Part shown: positions 708-22,363 of the stretch, in pieces | Layout: the number at the start of each line of letters is the position of its first letter | Position numbering within the stretch: the first letter of the stretch is position 1 | Source: Verrucomicrobiia bacterium Tous-C4TDCM | GTDB taxonomy: Bacteria > Verrucomicrobiota > Verrucomicrobiia > Verrucomicrobiales > Akkermansiaceae | Assembly: GCA_002304315.1 (NCBI GenBank) | Contig: NEUO01000004.1 | Coordinates: 1-56,723 of the forward strand | Length of the DNA: 56,723 nt | Reading direction: 5' to 3' | Position numbers and translations under genes: made by a program | Notes under the pieces: model-generated | Told to the model about the DNA's origin: nothing | What the model saw: the letters and a program-made list of their open reading frames with translations, nothing else | Database searches by the model: none

Positions 708-3062
708 TTAGAGCTTCCCGAGACCGCGGAGGGTTTCGAGGATTTCGGCGACTTGGCCGGCGCGTTTCGCGGACTTCTTGCCGAAGCGGGCGGCGATGGC
801 TTCGGGGTCGGGTCCGAGGGCGGGGACGAGCTTTTGAACCGCGGCGACCTGGGCCGCCAGACCGTCCGGCCATGCGAGCTTGTCGGGCAGGCTCGCGGAC
901 TTGGCGGCGGTGGTGCCGGCGCTGAGTTGGATCTCGTCTTGCTCTTCCGCCGGCAAGGCGACGGTGCCGGGTGCCTGGTAGTCGGGCCGGAGCCAGCGGA
1001 CGAGGCCGCGCTTCTCTTCCGCGGCCCGCTCGTGGTTGAGGGTGACGAGGCGGGAGAGGATCTCTTGTTCGAGGGACTCGCGGGATTCGGCGAGCATCTT
1101 GTCAAAGTCCGCGGCGGGATCGAGGTCGGGTTGAATGAGGGTGCCGCTTGCGCGGTCGTAGAGCGTGCATCCGTCGATTGCCACCGCCTTCCATGCCGCC
1201 CCGAGGTCGGGCCAGCCGTAGGCTTCGAAAACGGCCAAGTCGAGATCGTCGTGAATCTGCTTGAGGATCGAGACGAGGCCCTTGTCGTGAATCGCCTTTT
1301 CCTTCGCATTCAGCGGACGGCCGGCGCGGACGGCTTCGAGGACGTTGTAAAGGCCCGTCAAGGTGAGGTCCGGGTGAAGCTCTTGCTGCCGCTTCCGGTG
1401 CGCGTCGAGCCGCTCGCCCAAGTCGCGGATTCGCTGCTTCAAGGGGCCTTCTGCGAGGGCGGGGAAAGGGAAGGGCGCGAAGCAACGCGTGTTGTTGTAG
1501 CGCGGGTCATTTCCCACTCCTAGGCGTCCCCCAGCGGCGAGAGCCCAAACGACATGAGGTGAAGACGAGAGAATTCCTAAAATTGAACCGTCGTCCGAAG
1601 CGATTGCATTGAGGGCTTGGTCCGGAAGAGTGACGGTTGGGATGAAGATGAAGAAGCGGTGTTTCGCAGTCACCGGGGTAGCCACAAAGCGGGAGAGTCC
1701 AGAGAGTTGCCTTCGGAGCGAGGGTTGCGGCTCGCCTAGAATCCACCAATTTTCGCGGTAGGAATCGCGGCTGTTTTGATCTCGAAGGGGTTTAACCGTC
1801 GTCAGGAGATGCTGATACAAGGCCGGCTTTCGGCTTCTCACTTCGGCTTCGCTCCAACCGAAGAAATCAATAACTGAAACCTCGCGGGGGCGGTTCGTGA
1901 CATCCTTCCCATTCAAATAGGGCCGGACCACTTGAGGCACTTCGCTATCGCTCGCGGTGAAGTGTCTCGCTTCGTCCGGCTTCAGAACAAACCCCTCGCC
2001 GATGGTCTGGACGCCACGCGAAACTAGATCGTCGTTGGCGCGGAGGGGTTGGCAGGATGAAACGTCCGCCCCGATTTTGAAGTCTGCCGCAAGGGTGCCC
2101 GTGCTACGCACAACAATCACGTCGTTCTCTCCGTCTTCCCTCGCTTGCTCATACACAACCTTTTCGAGAGTTCCTTCTCCCTTCCCATGTGCGGCAACCG
2201 TCATTGCAATTCTGACATCGGCACCGTCCGCAGAATCAACCCAAGGGTGATCGGGGATGGCGTAACCGAGGTGAAGCGGCTTCTTCTCGTCGGCAAGAAA
2301 GGGCTCAATGACGCGGCGGTTGAAGATCTGGTGAATCGAGTTCGTCGTGATGAAGCCGAAGCGCTTGGCCGTTCTGTCACGGACGAGTTCAGCCGCTTTT
2401 CCCCACCAATACATCACGAAGTCCGAGGACTCGGGAACGTCACCCTTCCACGCCTTCCGCAGTGTCTCGACGTAGCCATTTCCAAGCGCTTCCCGCATGG
2501 CGGCGGCACCAATGAAAGGCGGATTTCCCACGATGACATCGGCGGCCGGCCATTCGGCGCGGCGGGGGTTGGTGTAGTCGAAAACGACTTTCCGGGCGCT
2601 GTCGTCGGGGACTTCGTTTCCCGTGATCGGATGCGGCTTGGTCGTGATGCCGTCCCAAATCGTGACGACTTCGCCGGTGTCCGGGTCTTTCCGCGGGATG
2701 GCTTCATCGTAGGCGAGGACGGCGTCTTGTTGAACGATCGAGGGCGTTTTCGGGAGAAGCGGGCGCTCGTTGGTGTCCGCCTTGCCGGTGGTCTTGCGTT
2801 GCCACTGGAAGAAGCCGATCCACAGGACGAGCTGGGCAATCGCGACGGCGCGGCGGTTGAGTTCCAGTCCGAGGAACTGCCGCGGGCCGATCTTGAAGGA
2901 CGCCATTTCAAAGCCGGCATCGCCCCCGAGTTCCTCGAAGGCTTCGAGCACTTCCGCTTCGAGCCGCTTCATGAGTTCGAGCGAGACGTAAAGGAAGTTC
3001 CCCGAGCCGCAGGCGGGATCGAGGACTTTCAAGGTGCAAAGCTTTCGGTAAATTTGTTGTCG
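708..3062 (-). pseudogene. 5'-truncated DNA methyltransferase (type IIG / MmeI-like)
   Basis: An open frame of about 785 codons without a proper start. It opens directly after the in-frame TGA of the terminase fragment at 3063 and enters the SAM-binding motif almost at once (KVLDPACGSGNFLY, motif I). The amino-methyltransferase motif IV NPPF follows at about residue 170. The middle and C-terminal parts resemble the target-recognition and helical regions of large class I DNA methyltransferases of type IIG restriction-modification systems. Those proteins carry several hundred residues before motif I (often a nuclease and linker domain), which are missing here. The first possible start is a TTG at 3032, so a working product is unlikely. 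The 5' part appears to have been replaced by phage-type sequence. Confidence 0.8.
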
Positions 3063-3539
3063 TCATGCCGCTTCCTCAACGTCGATCACCGGCGGATTGG
3101 CGGATCCCAGCGCGTCGATTGCCGCACGGTGCTGGAATGCCAGTGCCTGAAGCTCGGCAACCGTGTAGTCGGTGAGTGCCTTGCCCTCGTCGCCGGGATT
3201 ACGAGCCAGAAGCCGCCGGTTCTCAAGTCCGTGCCCGGCGCTCTCCAGGACGAAGCGGGCCGCTTGGACTCTTGCGGCGGCGGGCGCTGTCTCGTCGTCG
3301 AGGATGCCCTCTAGCGTCCTGATGGCCTTGTCTGCCAGCGGCCCCGCAAGGCGGGCCTCGCGATGCTCATAGGCCGCCTTCTGAATTTCCGGGTGACGCA
3401 TGAGCCGGCCGGCAGTGACAGACAGCGCGTTGGGGCTCCCGTGAGCGTATCCCGCAGCGCGGGCCGCGTCGCTTTGCGTCATGCCGCCTGCGATATTCTT
3501 CGCAAAGCGGGCCTGCTTGTCTGTGAGACGATCAGCAAG
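3063..3539 (-). pseudogene. Phage terminase small subunit-like fragment
   Basis: The frame reads LTDKQARFAKNIAGGMTQ followed by AARAAGYA, the helix-turn-helix opening of phage terminase small subunits (Terminase_2 type). A basic and acidic helical part follows (DKAIRTLEGILDDE). Translation can be followed upstream to 3680, but residues before about 3539 come from a different gene read out of frame (the AAA+ fragment), so the native start seems to be lost. It shares its reading frame with the methyltransferase remnant, separated only by its own TGA. This suggests a phage-derived piece spliced between two unrelated genes. If translated at all it would start at an internal codon such as the ATG of MTQSD. 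Confidence 0.6.
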
Positions 3540-3734
3540 CCCTTGGGAGCAGGGAGGCCATAGGCTTTGGCGGATGCGGAGAAGGCACCGCCGCGGCGCT
3601 GGAGCCACTCCTTGAGCTGGCCGAGGCCGCCGATGTCGTCGAGGGACGTCGAGGGACGTCGTGGCTTCGACGACTTCCACCAGGCCGTTGCGTTTGAGCG
3701 TGGCTGCTAGGAATTTGCTTTTGACGGGAGGTCC
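3535..3734 (-). pseudogene. AAA+ ATPase fragment (Ycf46-like)
   Basis: On the minus strand after a TAG at 3735-3737 the frame reads KSKFLAATLKRNGLVEVVEA, then TTSLD. After a frame change caused by the 10-bp duplication at 3641-3660 it continues DDIGGLGQLKEWLQRR, then a stretch ending GLPAPKGLLI. This is the segment just before the Walker A loop in Ycf46-type AAA+ ATPases. The Walker A, Walker B and the rest of the ATPase are absent; the sequence runs directly into the terminase fragment. It is a remnant of about 65 codons, not a functional gene. Confidence 0.6.
3641..3660. repeat. 10-bp perfect tandem duplication
   Basis: The unit gagggacgtc occurs twice in a row. Removing one copy restores the frame of the AAA+ fragment (TTSLD-DIGGLG), so the duplication is a frameshifting slippage event inside that remnant. 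Confidence 0.9.
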
Positions 3735-3766
3735 CTAAAACAGCCGTTGGGGGAGTCTTCGCTGCG

Positions 3767-4138
3767 CTACGCCTGCCCAAGCCGGACCGGAGGACGGGGA
3801 AAAGGGGGTTGGTCAAGCCACAGTTTGACATCATCGTCATCCGCCATGGCGGGGACGGTGGCCTTGGTCACGCGGTGGCTGGCGATGAAGCGGCGCGCTT
3901 CGGGGGCGGTGGCGGGGCTGAAAAGTCCCGCATGGAACCAGGGTTTGGAGTCTTCAAGAGGTCCGCGCAGGGCACACATCCTGCGGGCTGCCATGCAAGC
4001 CGACTGAAGGCGGGGATCGCCATGGCTGGCGAGATACTCCAGCCAGGCGTCGGCATGGTCGTTGAGATGCCCTTGCACGAGCCATGAGCGGTTGACGCGT
4101 TTCACCCGATCGAGAGTCGGCAGTGAAGAATGGTGCAT
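3767..4138 (-). CDS. Hypothetical protein
   Basis: A 123-aa protein starting at the ATG at 4138 (MHHSSLPTLDRVKRV). Codon use matches the high-GC third position of its neighbours. Recognisable runs are WLVQGHLNDHADAWLEYL, RRMCALRGPLEDSKPWF and EARRFIASHRVTKATV. It is soluble and mixed in charge, without signal peptide or membrane segment. It lies upstream of the AAA+ remnant on the same strand and divergent from the frameshifted TPR-like gene. I do not recognise the family. The long upstream extension of this frame is not convincing, so the start is chosen at the ATG after which composition becomes protein-like. Confidence 0.45.
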   Translation of the reverse strand: MHHSSLPTLDRVKRVNRSWLVQGHLNDHADAWLEYLASHGDPRLQSACMAARRMCALRGPLEDSKPWFHAGLFSPATAPEARRFIASHRVTKATVPAMADDDDVKLWLDQPPFPRPPVRLGQA

Positions 4139-4323
4139 CGTTTGGGTTGGAAGTCGGAGGGAACGGGAGCTTCGGGGAAATCGCAAATACAGATAATCGC
4201 TGGGTTGGAAGAGAGCCTGGGTCGCGGGGCTGAGAGCAGGCAATGGATCGGTTTTTCGGCCAGCACAAGGATTGCATCCGGCCGGGAATTCCGTAGGCTG
4301 CTGCCGAAGGTCGTGTCCAAAAC

Positions 4324-4775
4324 AATGCAAGCCGCCACCGGATGGCTCGAACTCGGGATTGTCGACGAGGCATTGGTAGAGCTTGAATCGCTGCCGTTGG
4401 ACATGCGGAAGCAGCGTGAGGCCCTCGAATTGAGGGCTCGCCGCGCAGATGGTCATCCAGTCCTCGAATTCCGCCTCGGACACGGCACGCTTGCTGTGCC
4501 TTAAAGCGGCGGATGAACTGGTGTTCTTCCTGCGGGCCGCGTTTTGCCTGTATGAAACCGGGGACACGCTTGCTGCCTGCAACTGGCTCCTGCGCGGACC
4601 CAAGACGCTTTTTGACATGACCACTTTCCACTACGATCTCGCCTGTCATCTGTGGACTTTGGGAGAAAGCAAGCGGGCGCGCAGCCATCTGAAACAGGCG
4701 ATCACAATGGATGAGTCATTCCTCGAAGCCGCACGCGATGACCGCGATCTCGCCGGTATCGGGCCATTGCATTGA
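4324..4775 (+). pseudogene. TPR-like protein, frameshifted
   Basis: Two overlapping frames together make one protein. The first starts at the ATG at 4324 (MQAATGWLELGIVDEALVEL) and ends EALELRAR. The second continues from about 4440 with QMVIQSSNSASDTARLLC, then RAAFCLYETGDTLAACNWLL, FHYDLACHLWTLGESKRARS and a final TPR helix pair. The FHYDLACHLWTLG segment is the classic TPR pattern. The frame changes near 4440, in a GC-rich stretch without a long homopolymer. The first frame otherwise ends at 4504. It is a relative of the intact gene at 286-693. Either a genuine lesion or a sequence error. Confidence 0.65.
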
Positions 4776-15854: not shown

Positions 15855-17037
15855 TCATCCGGGTGACCGGGATCGGCGCGATTTGTGGCCGTCTTTGGGG
15901 ACGACTCCTTGGCGATGGGAGCTGTTGCGACGATGACCATTTCCGTGGCGTCGCAGATTGTCAGAGCGGCGGCGGGAGGGGAAGGTCAGAGCGGCGGCGG
16001 GAGGGGAAGGCGGAAGTTCCTCGGGCATCCCACCGTGCGGGTGGCAGCGGGCATGGACTTCCTGAAGAGCCTTGATGCTGACGTGGGTGTAGATCTGAGT
16101 GGTGTCGAGTCGGGCGTGGCCCAGCATCTCCTGGACGTGGCGGATGTCCGCGCCGTTCTCATGCATGTGGGTGGCGCAGGAATGGCGAAACAAATGCGAC
16201 GCACCGGGCTTGGTGATCCCGACGCGCTTCATCTGCTTGGCGACCCAGGTGCCGAGGTAGGCCGGGGTGAAGGCGGTACCGTAGCCGGAGAGGAAGAGTC
16301 CGGTCTCGGTTGGCAGGTAGGCGATCAGCGGCCTGGCCTCGGAGAGGTAGCGTTCGAGCCAGACAACGGCGTGGCCGCCGACCGGGAGCAAGCGGGATTT
16401 GCCGTTCTTCCCGCGCCGGACCAGGAGGGTCCGGGCGTGGGGATCGTAATCGCCGATCTCCAGCCGGGTCATTTCGGTGCGGCGGACGCCGGTGGAGTAA
16501 AACAATTCGAGGGTGGTGCGGTCGCGCAGGCCGAAGGGGCTGTTAACATCGGGAAAGCGCGAGCAGGCGGTCGATCTCTTCCGGGCTGAGCGACTTCGGC
16601 AGGGCGCGGGCCTGCTTGCGGGGCAGGTCGAGGTCGGAGGCGGGATTGGCGGGCAGGATGCCGTCGCGGCAGAGCCAGGCGAAGAAGCGGCGGATGCAGC
16701 CGAGGCGGGCGAGCTGGGTATTGATCGCCAGCGCCTTTCCGCCGCGCGGGGACCGGTAGTGGAAGAGGTAGAGCTGGTATGCCTCCAGCCGGCCGCGGGT
16801 GAACGTGGCGGGATCGTGGTAGCCGTGACTGTCGCACCAGTCGAGGAACTGACGCAAAGCCCAGCGGTGCATCTCGGCGGTGGCGACCGAATAGCCTCGG
16901 GTCTCCAGCCTCAGGAGGAAGCGCGGGACGAGTTCTTGCAGCGTGCCGGAATCGGCGGCGGGTGCCTGCAATTTGCGACGGTGGTCGCACGCCACAGGGG
17001 CATGGGCGCTGAATCTCAAGGTGAAGCGTGGTGGCAT
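15855..17037 (-). pseudogene. Tyrosine recombinase (XerD-like integrase), frameshifted
   Basis: The N-terminal frame (17037-16543) contains the SAM-like core-binding domain and ends PKSLSPEEIDRLLAL. One base out of frame the catalytic domain continues DVNSPFGLRDRTTLELFYST. Catalytic residues are all present: Arg in STGVRRTEM, Lys in RGKNGKSRLLP, HLFRHSCATHMHENG (HxxR), the second His in MLGHARLDTTQ and Tyr in QIYTHVSI. The shift lies at 16551-16556 (gggaaa), where deleting one base restores the reading frame. A second lesion is the 25-bp duplication near the 3' end. The C-terminal boundary is uncertain. Probably inactive, unless the single-base shift is an error. Confidence 0.85.
15961..16010. 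repeat. 25-bp perfect tandem duplication
   Basis: The 25-bp unit beginning tcagagcggcggcggg is repeated exactly at 15961-15985 and 15986-16010. Because 25 is not a multiple of three it shifts the frame of the recombinase tail. With one copy removed, the recombinase frame continues through to the RHS fragment. Confidence 0.92.
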
Positions 17038-17932: not shown

Positions 17933-20365
17933 TTACGGCCGTTCGCGGAGCAATTGCCGTAAGATATCGAGGTCGACGGGTTTGACCAAATGGCGATCAA
18001 AGCCCGCCTCTTGAGTGAGCGCGCGGTCCTCGTCCCTGCCATAGCCGGTCATCGCCACGAGGAAAGTTCCCGCCGTGGCCGGCATGGCACGGAGTTGGCG
18101 GGCGACTTCGTAGCCGTCCATGCCAGGCAGGCCGATGTCGAGCAGCACCACGTCGGGCACGAATTCGGCGGCGGCGACGATGGCATCGGGACCGGTGAAA
18201 GCGGTCCGTGTCTCGTGGCCGCGCATGCCTTGGAGCGTGGCCATGGTCCAGGCGGAATCCTCGTTGTCATCGACGATGAGAATCCGGTGCGGGGTGTTGT
18301 GGGCCTCAGCCGCGGGCGGCGGAGCAGGCGCAGCGGCGGCGGCGAGGATGGGCAGGCGGACGATGAATTCGCTGCCGTGGCCGAGTCCTTCGCTGCGCGC
18401 CTCGACACTGCCGCCGTGAAGCTTCACCAGCCGCTGCACGAGGGTCAGGCCGATTCCCAGCCCGCCATGCGCACGATCCAGCGAGCGGTTGGCCTGCACG
18501 AAGAGATCGAAGATGCGCGGGAGCAGCTCGGGCGCGATGCCGATGCCGTTATCGCGCACACGCACAATGACCTCCGGCGGCTCCTCGCCGAGCGGTTCGG
18601 CGCGCTCGGCACGTACGGAAATATGGCAACCTGGCCCGCTGTATTTGCACGCATTGGTCAGGAGATTGCCGAAGACCTGATCGAGCCGGGTGGCATCCGC
18701 GTGAAGGAAAACCGGCTCGGCCGGGAGTTTAATGGTGATTTCCTGGCCGCGCGCTTCGATGCCCCGCTCCGCAAGACTCGCCGCTGCGTCCAGCACGGCT
18801 TCGAGCGCCACCACTTCCAGGCGCAATTCGATCTTTCCCTCGGTGATGCGCGAGACATCGAGCAGATCGTCGATCATCTCGCTCATGTTTTCGATCTGGC
18901 GGCTGAGGATCTCCACGGCCTGCCCGGTCGCCTCCACGGAAGCGCCCGGCGTCTGCAAGATCTCGGTAGCGCTGCGCAGCGGTGCCAGCGGATTGCGCAG
19001 TTCGTGGGCGAGCATGCCCAGGAATTCATCCTTGCTGCGGTCCGCCCGGACGAGATCCGCGGCGCGATCCGCGATGGATCGCTCCAGCGCGTGGCGCTCG
19101 GAAGTATCCGCGAAGTAGCAGACCGCGGCGTACCGCCCATCCGGCAGAGTGAAGCGCTGCACCTCCCATTCATAGGATTCCTCCACGTCGAGATCCCGAC
19201 GCGTCTCGGTGAAGGACGGCGAGACGTAGCGCTCGCCGGTTTCCAGCGTGTGCCGGAAAATGTCCGCGATCCGTCCGCCGACTTTCTCTCCCCAAAGCAC
19301 CTTCACCACTTCGGTGAAATCCAGGCCCACCAGCGGATCGACGTGGGCGAAAATCGGCAAGGCCCGGGTGTTGACCTGTTGCAGCCGGAAATGGTCATCC
19401 ACCACATACATGCCGATCGGGGCGTTCTCAACCAGGCTGGAAAACAGACTCTGGCTCGCTTGCAACGCCTGCTCGGCCCGCTTGCGTGCCGTGATGTCCG
19501 TGAGGTTTTCCAGCACCGCGGCAGGGTGGCCCTCGCCGTCGCGATCCAGCGTCTTGCGGGCGAGCACCGTCAGGCGGCGTCCATCGCGCGCCGTATGCAC
19601 CAGCTCGCCGATCCAGCGGTCTTTCCGGTGCAGCTCGGCGGCCATCTGTTCCACGGGGATCGGGAATTCGGTCTGGAGCAGAAGATGGCTGACCTTCCCC
19701 ATCGCCTCTTCCCGGGACCAGCCATACAGCTGTTCCGCTCCATGGTTCCAATAGCGGATTCGGCTCTCCATGTCGCGCACGATGATGGCGTCGTGGGTCA
19801 GGTCGAGCAGCCGTGCCTTTTCGGCCAGCTCCCGGGCCTTTTGCGAAAGTTCGGCGGTGATCAGCGCGCGGGCGGCGATTTCCTCCCGCAGGCGCGCGTT
19901 CACGTCCTCCGCCGCGTCGGTCAATTGATGCTGGCGCACCGCCCCGAGCAGCAGCGCCTCGTTCAGCGCCATCGCCGTCTCGTGGAAGTGAGCGGTTTCC
20001 GTCACCTGGATCATCATGCCGACGTGGTGCTCGTCCGCCTTCATCGGCCAGATCGTGTAGGACCAGAAGACCGGATGGGGTTTGGCATCCTCCTTCTGGA
20101 TATGGCGCTCGGGCCTTCCCGTGCGGAACACGCGGTCGAGCAGCGTCACGCATTCATCCCGCGCCGGCAGCAGGTCCTGGAGCGGCCGGCCGACGAGGCG
20201 CTCCAGCGGCTGATCCAGCAGCACGCAAAAGGCAGGGTTGGCATAACGCAGGATGTGCGTGGCCCCGTCCACCGTGGCGATCGGCAAAGGCGCGTGCTCG
20301 GTGATCGCGACGCAAAGGCCCGACAAGTCGGGCGGCAGGCCGGCTGGGTTGGATTCCACGCTCAT
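17933..20365 (-). CDS. Multi-PAS hybrid histidine kinase with receiver domain
   Basis: An 810-aa protein from the ATG at 20365. Order: PAS (about 15-125), a coiled-coil stretch (about 135-190), PAS (about 190-300, IRYWNHGAEQLYGWSREEA), PAS (about 305-425, ENAPIGMYVVDDHFRLQQVN), HisKA with the phospho-acceptor His 454 in LGMLAHELRNPLAPLRS, HATPase (LLTNACKYSG, RDNGIGI, GGLGIGL), and a C-terminal receiver domain (ILIVDDNEDSA, phospho-Asp in VVLLDIGLPGMDGYE, MTGYG, LVKP). No membrane segment is visible, so it is a cytosolic sensor. It follows the KaiC-like gene by 7 bp and is the third gene of the operon 22363-17933. No separate output regulator is encoded next to it. Confidence 0.93.
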   Translation of the reverse strand: MSVESNPAGLPPDLSGLCVAITEHAPLPIATVDGATHILRYANPAFCVLLDQPLERLVGRPLQDLLPARDECVTLLDRVFRTGRPERHIQKEDAKPHPVFWSYTIWPMKADEHHVGMMIQVTETAHFHETAMALNEALLLGAVRQHQLTDAAEDVNARLREEIAARALITAELSQKARELAEKARLLDLTHDAIIVRDMESRIRYWNHGAEQLYGWSREEAMGKVSHLLLQTEFPIPVEQMAAELHRKDRWIGELVHTARDGRRLTVLARKTLDRDGEGHPAAVLENLTDITARKRAEQALQASQSLFSSLVENAPIGMYVVDDHFRLQQVNTRALPIFAHVDPLVGLDFTEVVKVLWGEKVGGRIADIFRHTLETGERYVSPSFTETRRDLDVEESYEWEVQRFTLPDGRYAAVCYFADTSERHALERSIADRAADLVRADRSKDEFLGMLAHELRNPLAPLRSATEILQTPGASVEATGQAVEILSRQIENMSEMIDDLLDVSRITEGKIELRLEVVALEAVLDAAASLAERGIEARGQEITIKLPAEPVFLHADATRLDQVFGNLLTNACKYSGPGCHISVRAERAEPLGEEPPEVIVRVRDNGIGIAPELLPRIFDLFVQANRSLDRAHGGLGIGLTLVQRLVKLHGGSVEARSEGLGHGSEFIVRLPILAAAAAPAPPPAAEAHNTPHRILIVDDNEDSAWTMATLQGMRGHETRTAFTGPDAIVAAAEFVPDVVLLDIGLPGMDGYEVARQLRAMPATAGTFLVAMTGYGRDEDRALTQEAGFDRHLVKPVDLDILRQLLRERP

Positions 20366-20372
20366 CGTTTCA

Positions 20373-21929
20373 CTATTTCGCCTTTGGTTCCGGCACGGCA
20401 TCTTCCCGCTTGCCGACACGCGTCGGGATGCCGGTGGTGAGGCCGGTGTAATCGGTCTGGCGCGGCTGGATAATCACCACGCCTTTGTCCGTGATGACGT
20501 ATTCCCGGATGTCTTTGCTATGATTGCCACCGCGCATTTTGATCACGACCATCACTTTGCGAAGCTGGCCGTCGATCTCGACATAGCGCATCCGGATGAT
20601 GTCATCGGTGAGGAAGGAAATCGCGTAATGGCTGAACGGCATCGCGGTGAAGGTGTCCTCCACTTCGACCGTGCTCAGGATGGTGATCCCGGCGCCGGTC
20701 AGCGCGTTGATCATCCGGTAAAGCCACTCGCGGAAGTCCGCGCGGAATCCCGGCGCGAGCGCCATTTCGAAACCGACCAGCGAATCGATGACCAGCCGCT
20801 TGGCGCCGACGCGCGCGATGGCGTCGAGGATTTCCTGCAAGGTTTCATCGACCGAGAGATCGAGCGGGCGGAGGTAGAGGATTTCGAGGGTTCCCTTCTT
20901 CTGCGGCGTCTTGAGATTCAGTCCGAAACCGGAAGCGCGGTCGGCGTAACCCTTGGGGCGTTCCTCGAAGACGGCAATGATTCCGGGTTCCCCCTGGCGC
21001 AGGCCTTCGGCGATGAACTGCGTGGCCAGTGCCGACTTCCCCGTGCCCGATGGTCCCGCGATGAGCAGGCTGTCGCCTTCCAGCAGGCCGCCGCCCAGCA
21101 TCTTGTCCAGTTCGGGAATGCCGATGGAAAGCCGCTGCCGCCGCTCCGACCGCACCTTCTTCTCGACCAGGCCCAGCGTGCGCGAAAACGCCTGCACGCC
21201 CGCCGCGCTGATACGGATCGTATGGAGGCCCGGCACGGACTCCTGCCCGCGCAGCTTCATGACTTGCAGCTTGCGCACCACGGAATTTCTCTCCGGCACC
21301 TGCGACAGCCAGAGCAGCGCGTCGGCGATGGTGAAAACGGGATTGTCTTTGACCTCCTCGGGAGCGTATTCACCGACGAGGAAGGTGGTGGCTTCCCAAC
21401 TGGTCAAAAACTGGGCAAGGCGCTGGATGAAAACCTGCATGTCCAGCTCGCTTGCGCCGCTCATTGCCTTGCGCACCACGGTGCGGAACGAGTCCACCAC
21501 GACGAGGCTCGGGCCGACCGCCTCGACCTGCTTGACGATTTCCTCAAACACCGCGTCGAGGTTCCTTTCAAGGACCACATCGGCCAGATTGATAAAGCGG
21601 ATGGCCCGGCCCAGCTTGGCTTCGTCGAAGAAGGCGAACTGCTGCTGGTAGCGCAGCATCTTCATCGCCGGTTCTCCCAAAACGGTGAAATAGAGCGCGG
21701 GCTTTTTCTCCGTGGCATTGGCGAAGACGATCTGGTGGGCCAGCGTCGTCTTCCCGCAACCGGGAGTGCCGGCGATGATGTTGAACGAAAATTCCGGGAT
21801 GCCGCCGCCGAGGATGTCGTCGAGGCCGCGCACGCCGCTGGGGATTTTGCGGATTACCACCTTTGCCGGCGGCCGCGAGGGCCCTTTCTTGGACTGCGGA
21901 CGTTCCGCAGGAGTTTTAGCCTTTTTCAT
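20373..21929 (-). CDS. Double-domain KaiC-like ATPase
   Basis: A 518-aa RecA-fold protein with two KaiC domains in tandem, as in cyanobacterial KaiC (about 519 aa). Walker A in domain 1 is AGTPGCGKTT (54-62), Walker B LVVVDSF (142-148). Walker A in domain 2 is AGPSGTGKSA (291-300), followed by IIAVFEERPKGY with the catalytic Glu pair. The C-terminal segment AISFLTDDIIRMRYVEI matches the region carrying the KaiC phosphosites; by eye the Ser is kept but the adjacent Thr is Phe. No kaiA or kaiB is in the window. The start ATG at 21929 overlaps the stop of the preceding gene (ATGA). A signalling role with the downstream kinase is inferred. Confidence 0.93.
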   Translation of the reverse strand: MKKAKTPAERPQSKKGPSRPPAKVVIRKIPSGVRGLDDILGGGIPEFSFNIIAGTPGCGKTTLAHQIVFANATEKKPALYFTVLGEPAMKMLRYQQQFAFFDEAKLGRAIRFINLADVVLERNLDAVFEEIVKQVEAVGPSLVVVDSFRTVVRKAMSGASELDMQVFIQRLAQFLTSWEATTFLVGEYAPEEVKDNPVFTIADALLWLSQVPERNSVVRKLQVMKLRGQESVPGLHTIRISAAGVQAFSRTLGLVEKKVRSERRQRLSIGIPELDKMLGGGLLEGDSLLIAGPSGTGKSALATQFIAEGLRQGEPGIIAVFEERPKGYADRASGFGLNLKTPQKKGTLEILYLRPLDLSVDETLQEILDAIARVGAKRLVIDSLVGFEMALAPGFRADFREWLYRMINALTGAGITILSTVEVEDTFTAMPFSHYAISFLTDDIIRMRYVEIDGQLRKVMVVIKMRGGNHSKDIREYVITDKGVVIIQPRQTDYTGLTTGIPTRVGKREDAVPEPKAK

Positions 21930-22363
21930 GATGGGTCGTCGTTGCTGAAATGGGTTTCGTCGAGAGTCAGTTTCGGCCACACGTCGCGCAGCATCCGCAA
22001 GGTGAGACTGCGGCCGATGAATGCTTCCAACAGGCCGAGCAGTTGCGCGAGCAGCACCACGCTCCCCTCGGCGACTTTTTGCAGCTCCGCAGGCGTTCCC
22101 GTCTCCTCAACTCCGCCCAAGGAGCCATCGGCCTGCACTTGCACCGCGCGCAGCGCCGGAGCCTCCGATGCCGCCATTGCAAGGGCTCGTGAGAGAAGCG
22201 CACAAAAGCCGGCCTTGCCCATCAGCGTCGCGAGATGAGGGCGTAGTTTTTCGCAAACCTCAAAGGCGGCCGGAGTGTGCGGTCGGCCTGCCTTTCCCCC
22301 TTGCGTCTCGAAAGCGACGAGTCGCTCGGCGAATTCCCGCATCAAGGGCGTGGCGCGGCTCAT
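21926..22363 (-). CDS. Uncharacterised 145-aa protein, first gene of the KaiC/kinase operon
   Basis: Starts at the ATG at 22363, preceded by a GGGGAG ribosome-binding sequence. It appears helical, with runs EVCEKLRPHLATLMGKAGF, ALLSRALAMAASEAPALRAV and VVLLAQLLGLLEAFIGRSLTL. There is no signal peptide, and the hydrophobic helix near residues 105-125 is too polar for a sure membrane anchor. Its stop codon overlaps the kaiC-like start by four bases, so translation is coupled. I recall similar proteins next to KaiC-like genes in other environmental bacteria, but no function is known to me. It is a candidate partner, input or adaptor of the KaiC-like ATPase. Confidence 0.85.
   Translation of the reverse strand: MSRATPLMREFAERLVAFETQGGKAGRPHTPAAFEVCEKLRPHLATLMGKAGFCALLSRALAMAASEAPALRAVQVQADGSLGGVEETGTPAELQKVAEGSVVLLAQLLGLLEAFIGRSLTLRMLRDVWPKLTLDETHFSNDDPS

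What the first reader, a model, noticed from the sequence alone, without database searches (positions are those of the whole stretch)
17933..22363. Three-gene KaiC-like / hybrid kinase module with an uncharacterised first gene
Seen in sequence: an ATGA overlap between the 145-aa gene and the KaiC-like gene, and a 7-bp gap to an 810-aa triple-PAS hybrid kinase with a receiver domain. Known: KaiC is an autokinase/ATPase at the heart of the cyanobacterial clock, read out by the kinase SasA. Inferred: here the KaiC-like ATPase may be switched by the small protein and read by the cytosolic kinase, without KaiA or KaiB. The domain-2 EE pair is kept, the phosphosite Ser is kept, and the neighbouring Thr is Phe. 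This is the best candidate for a little-described signalling system in the window.
Basis: partly seen in the sequence, partly recalled or inferred. Interest (0 to 1): 0.72.

Follow-up and report, generated by a model that had tools for sequence, protein, structure and literature searches.

The report
KaiC switch with small partner protein
Bacteria from distant phyla carry a mobile gene set in which a relative of the cyanobacterial clock protein KaiC nearly always travels with a small protein of unknown family and usually with a signalling kinase, hinting at a clock-related switch that still has to be tested.

Summary
In detail: three minus-strand genes encode a 145-aa protein, a double-domain KaiC-like ATPase (ATGA overlap) and, 7 bp on, a triple-PAS hybrid kinase with a receiver. 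Both exceptions are broken or remnant KaiC genes. It is absent from 12 of 12 distant KaiC-like loci. The gene-1-bearing KaiCs form one clade (99/99) that cuts across host kinship, so the cassette has probably moved horizontally. New here: output domains vary, but 11 of 16 downstream genes share a 42-residue stretch not found in sampled genomes without the module, apart from one marginal hit. The small protein matches no Pfam, NCBIfam or PHROG family convincingly; its helical model (pLDDT 83) has no clear PDB match. KaiC beside a kinase without KaiA or KaiB was published in 2011, so this is a new variant of a known kind. That the small protein binds KaiC and the kinase reads it is inference. 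The phosphosite Ser is Ala in the Caballeronia copies, so phosphorylation there cannot be the common signal.

The parts
21926..22363 (-). Gene 1: 145-aa helical protein, family without a name; near-constant upstream neighbour of this KaiC clade
   Evidence: no Pfam/NCBIfam/PADLOC hit; homologues upstream of KaiC; AF2 model pLDDT 83.3, pTM 0.81 (58)
20373..21929 (-). Gene 2: double-domain KaiC-like ATPase, 518 aa
   Evidence: PF06745 1.1e-68, two stretches; best PDB sequence matches are KaiC; clade 99/99 (78)
17933..20365 (-). Gene 3: hybrid histidine kinase, three PAS, HisKA, HATPase_c, receiver, 810 aa
19856..19981 (-). 42-residue stretch 'NEALLLxxxRQHxL' (probably helical) in the kinase, shared by most downstream genes of the module
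21926..21929 (-). ATGA overlap of gene 1 stop and KaiC start
21672..21680 (-). KaiC domain 1, residues L84 G85 E86 at the place of the catalytic Glu pair
   Evidence: VLGE in 17 of 17 clade members with domain 1 visible; alignment in 77
20961..20966 (-). KaiC domain 2 catalytic glutamates E322 E323, kept
20613..20618 (-). KaiC domain 2 phosphosite pair: S438 (S431) and F439 (T432)

Best explanation
A horizontally moving signalling module. KaiC forms the usual double-ring ATPase (inferred from homology). The small helical protein is its dedicated partner and binds the KaiC ring, setting its nucleotide or conformational state in the way KaiA or KaiB do in other systems (inferred). The kinase, or kinase-like output protein, docks on that complex through the conserved NEALL..RQHEL stretch and passes the state on by phosphotransfer, here to its own receiver (inferred). 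Shown: gene order, co-occurrence, a single KaiC clade, tree discordant with host kinship, module-restricted stretch in the kinases, varying output domains. Inferred: binding, direction of control, the signal sensed. Domain 2 keeps a Ser that could be autophosphorylated, but since the Caballeronia copies lack it, the common signal is more likely ATP/ADP state than a phosphorylation cycle.
For: Gene 1 directly upstream in 16 of 18 close KaiC loci with readable upstream DNA and in 0 of 12 distant ones. Of the 8 close loci found through KaiC and not through gene 1, 6 have it. In plasmids, the 4 records with KaiC at 49% or more among the 40 best listed of 292 are the same 4 that hold gene 1. The 14 gene-1-bearing KaiCs put in a tree are one side of a branch, 99/99, in 100% of 200 bootstrap trees. 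Identity matrices of gene 1 and KaiC correlate, Mantel r 0.89, 0 of 5000 permutations as high, n = 14. Kinase stretch: in 190 family genomes strong matches only in 4, all with gene 1 and/or this KaiC; 0 of 65 chosen genomes without the module. Output domains differ: hybrid HK, HisKA_2/HWE, HWE plus separate regulator, GGDEF-HisKA.
Against: No interaction was predicted or measured. The correlation of identities follows also from joint inheritance without contact. G069 and G138 have gene 1 and KaiC but no same-strand kinase next to them; G151 has gene 1 and kinase without KaiC; G129 has KaiC (split over two frames) and kinase without gene 1; downstream genes of G832, G882, G926 and two Caballeronia plasmids lack the stretch, and the third Caballeronia plasmid, whose KaiC is also split, has no annotated same-strand third gene. 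Most matches of the stretch were rows of its own profile, so only the absences elsewhere, a near-copy and one extra kinase are independent; one marginal hit (E 0.006) occurs in G072. The altered domain-1 pair is shared by 12 of 12 distant KaiC-like proteins, so it is no hallmark.
Confidence: 0.5

Rival explanations
1. An ordinary KaiC-histidine kinase pair of the already described heterogeneous group; gene 1 is a chaperone or assembly factor of KaiC with no signalling role.
For: KaiC followed by a kinase without KaiB is known (PMC3164672, passages); gene 1 is less conserved than KaiC, mean identity 32% against 58%.
Against: A chaperone would be expected with other KaiC-like proteins too; 12 of 12 distant ones lack it and the bearers are one clade. 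This is weak evidence.
Confidence: 0.25
2. Gene 1 is itself the sensor (of a small molecule or protein) and KaiC is only an ATP-driven relay between it and the kinase.
For: First gene of the set, low conservation, no known domain; compact helical model.
Against: No ligand-site evidence: 6 columns are invariant over 17 sequences (G49 L56 L111 L112 G117 R123), none of them typical of a cofactor site (my judgement).
Confidence: 0.15
3. A timer (hourglass) module: KaiC phosphorylation at Ser438 with gene 1 in the role of KaiB or KaiA.
For: Ser kept in 14 of 17 clade members, domain-2 EE kept outside Caballeronia; KaiBC hourglass known in Rhodobacter (PMC10076222, passages); a BLUF photoreceptor gene beside two copies.
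Against: Single site, Phe at the second in 17 of 17; Ser is Ala in 3 of 17. No Pfam KaiA or KaiB match among 17 gene-1 proteins at E up to 1.
Confidence: 0.1

Closest known systems
KaiC followed by histidine kinase without KaiB: second and third kaiC contexts of the Ramlibacter genome paper (PMC3164672; passages seen; figures not held)
   Same: Double-domain KaiC directly upstream of a kinase, no KaiB; the SF phosphosite profile is listed for both contexts and AF for the third (Fig. S6 legend)
   Different: The second-context kinase has a receiver-like N-terminal domain; here PAS plus the NEALL stretch. No small first gene is named in the passages, but the Fig. S6 legend lists 'HP, Hypothetical Protein' among neighbours, so a relative may be drawn there unnamed.
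KaiBC hourglass of Rhodobacter sphaeroides (PMC10076222; passages seen)
   Same: KaiC with a small dedicated partner and no KaiA
   Different: Its partner is KaiB; gene 1 matches no KaiB model. Its KaiC belongs to a clade with a C-terminal tail about 50 aa longer; the window KaiC ends at 518 aa without an evident one.
Cyanobacterial KaiABC with SasA (KaiC motifs from PMC5520375, passages; the rest recalled)
   Same: KaiC domains, domain-2 EE and first phosphosite Ser
   Different: No KaiB in the window's genome as held, T432 is Phe, no KaiB-like domain found in the kinase

Membership tests
KaiC (PF06745) double-domain ATPase | Two KaiC domains with Walker A in both | tested here: met
KaiC clock protein (NCBIfam equivalogs) | Score over the curated cut-off | tested here: not met
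   TIGR02655 172.3 against 546.25 bits; NF006799 258.6 against 408
KaiC clock protein | Two adjacent phosphosites (S431, T432) | tested here: not met
   S438 kept in the window, second is Phe in 17 of 17 clade members
KaiABC / KaiBC system | kaiB in the genome | tested here: inconclusive
   For the window's own genome (72% complete) no match. Of 13 module genomes 1 is over the cut-off (G129, same genus) and 1 below it (G451); two complete genomes have none
KaiABC system | kaiA in the genome | not tested
   No KaiA search of genomes was run; gene 1 does not match Pfam KaiA
KaiA or KaiB fold for gene 1 | Structural similarity | tested here: inconclusive
SasA-type KaiC-reading kinase | KaiB-like N-terminal domain | tested here: not met
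   No KaiB among the 10 families listed for the kinase at E up to 1; by sequence only
Second kaiC context of PMC3164672 | Kinase with receiver-like N-terminal domain | tested here: not met
   One receiver stretch, C-terminal 695-806
Module defined here | Gene 1 homologue directly upstream of KaiC | tested here: met

The most novel reading that the evidence does not exclude
A third way to run KaiC: an unrelated small helical protein has taken the regulatory place of KaiA/KaiB, and a plug-in docking helix lets the same KaiC core drive different outputs (phosphorelay or, in Caballeronia by another linker, c-di-GMP), spread as a cassette across phyla.
Probability: 0.35. Interest if true: 0.8.

Novelty: new variant of a known kind. 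Interest (0 to 1): 0.55.

Why it matters
KaiC-like proteins are found in many bacteria without the full clock, and their function is called unclear (PMC11832031, passages). A compact cassette with a near-constant partner, a recognisable stretch in its kinases and interchangeable outputs gives a testable system: purify three proteins and ask whether one changes KaiC and whether KaiC changes the kinase.

Tried and rejected

Counting notes. Close KaiC loci are those whose gene or best piece is 44% or more identical to the window's KaiC: the window, G187, G069, G138, G272, G282, G451 contig 79, G452, G453, G832, G882, four plasmids, the IMG/VR contig (all 16 with gene 1), G129 and the G451 contig 46 remnant (without). 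The KaiC of one gene-1 bearer, plasmid L047, is also split over two frames. G926 was dropped because its contig ends inside KaiC. The 8 found through KaiC alone are G832, G882, three Caballeronia plasmids, the IMG/VR contig, G129 and the G451 remnant. The tree left out the split or cut copies. The 12 distant loci are those held, not all that exist: of 292 plasmid records with a KaiC match only 8 were opened. Searches used E 1e-60 and scored 5 and 7 candidates per genome, so lower-ranked copies may be missed.

Full report
What is there. On the minus strand, genes 22363..21926 (145 aa), 21929..20373 (518 aa) and 20365..17933 (810 aa) follow each other with an ATGA overlap and a 7-bp gap. The second protein has two KaiC domains (PF06745, E 1.1e-68) and the third is a hybrid kinase with three PAS stretches, HisKA, HATPase_c and a receiver with its key motifs in place. 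The first matches nothing in Pfam, NCBIfam or PADLOC.

Is the trio more than chance? In genomes of the window's family, gene 1 is in 5 of 195 and the close KaiC in 5 of 195, the window's genome included in both. Four genomes are shared. G151 has gene 1 and kinase but no KaiC between them; G129 has KaiC, split over two frames in the assembly, and the kinase, but no gene 1. In the phylum sample both searches hit the same 3 of 288, the window's genome included. In the class of the Bauldia genome only that genome itself, 1 of 289, has the close KaiC. In the phylum of the Myxococcales genome 4 of 188 have one of 44% or more, counting that genome and G926, whose contig ends within the gene. Among 72,556 plasmids, 292 have some KaiC match; among the 40 best listed, 4 reach 49% identity, and these are the 4 with gene 1: one Paracoccus liaowanqingii and three from two Caballeronia strains. 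Overall gene 1 is directly upstream of 16 of 18 close KaiC loci with readable upstream DNA and of 0 of 12 distant ones. Of the 8 close loci not found through gene 1, 6 have it. A tree of 26 KaiC proteins puts the 14 gene-1 bearers included on one side of a branch, 99/99 (rooting is arbitrary, and some distant rows have long branches).

Movement. Within that group the Myxococcales and Bauldia proteins group with G069 and G138, which belong to the window's own family, apart from the window and G187 (95/95). The window's KaiC is 71% identical to the Myxococcales one and 69% to that of family member G069. Plasmid copies lie near transposase genes. This points to transfer of the cassette.

The output gene. 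Its domains change: triple-PAS hybrid kinase here, PAS plus HisKA_2/HWE in Bauldia, a 248-aa HWE kinase plus separate regulator in Paracoccus, GGDEF-HisKA in Caballeronia, GAF-like kinases in two Myxococcota (by eye, not scanned), and in G069 and G138 only a convergent BLUF gene. A 42-residue stretch, consensus NEALLLSxLRQHEL, is present in 11 of 16 downstream genes, in some of them without the first PAS. Its profile strongly matches only G000, G129, G151 and G187 among 190 family genomes, with one marginal hit at E 0.006 in G072. In 80 chosen genomes and records it matches 6, all with the module; 8 other module bearers, one genome with a related KaiC (G759) and 65 others have no match. Most positives were rows of the profile, so the independent results are the absence elsewhere, the near-copy in G151 and an extra kinase in G451 (E 1.8e-9). 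These kinases share a feature tied to the module; a docking role is my inference.

KaiC residues. Domain 2 keeps the EE pair (EQ in the three Caballeronia copies). The residue at S431 is Ser in 14 of 17 and Ala in 3 of 17 (Caballeronia); that at T432 is Phe in 17 of 17. Domain 1 reads VLGE in 17 of 17; but 12 of 12 distant KaiC-like proteins also lack EE there. A universal phosphorylation cycle is thus unlikely; nucleotide state is the better guess.

Gene 1 structure. AlphaFold2 with five aligned sequences gave pLDDT 83.3 and pTM 0.81; main helices 6-21, 32-67, 91-116, 118-128. No PDB chain resembles it clearly. This neither shows a new fold nor excludes a known one. Gene 1 and KaiC identities correlate (Mantel r 0.89, n = 14), as expected for genes inherited together.

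KaiB. Of 13 module genomes only G129 has a KaiB over the cut-off, about 4 kb from its KaiC and just upstream of another kinase; G451 has a match below the cut-off. The control search found KaiB-like matches in 6 of 14 known genomes, one over the cut-off.

Known context. The 2011 Ramlibacter paper already grouped KaiC genes into those with kaiB, those with a specific kinase and a heterogeneous rest, and proposed kinases reading KaiC without KaiB (passages). The window module fits the heterogeneous group best but adds a near-constant small partner and a marked kinase. The legend of its Fig. S6 lists hypothetical proteins among neighbours; the figure is not held, so I cannot exclude that gene 1 is drawn there unnamed. 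No paper about that partner appeared in the searches named under Tried and rejected.

Verdict. Real, conserved, probably mobile module; mechanism inferred; new variant of a known kind.

Noticed in passing
window 15858-16505 and 16546-17037 (-): Catalytic and N-terminal parts of a phage-type integrase lie in two separate frames about 0.9 kb beyond the module: apparently a broken tyrosine recombinase.
   Followed up: partly
L011:2894-3442(-), L012:7765-8340(-): A BLUF blue-light sensor gene lies convergent to gene 1-KaiC in G069 and G138, where no kinase follows KaiC.
   Followed up: partly
L010 (G151): Gene 1 and the kinase are present with KaiC absent between them; natural loss or assembly error not resolved.
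   Followed up: partly
L052:2293-2640 and 2644-4731 (G129): A KaiB-hybrid kinase pair about 4 kb from a KaiC that is split over two frames.
   Followed up: partly
L062 (IMG/VR contig): Gene 1-KaiC lies beyond phage-tail-like genes and a transposase-like gene (by eye): probably host DNA next to a prophage.
   Followed up: no
L059 (G451 contig 46): KaiC remnant in two overlapping frames; two kinases with the NEALL stretch lie near it.
   Followed up: no
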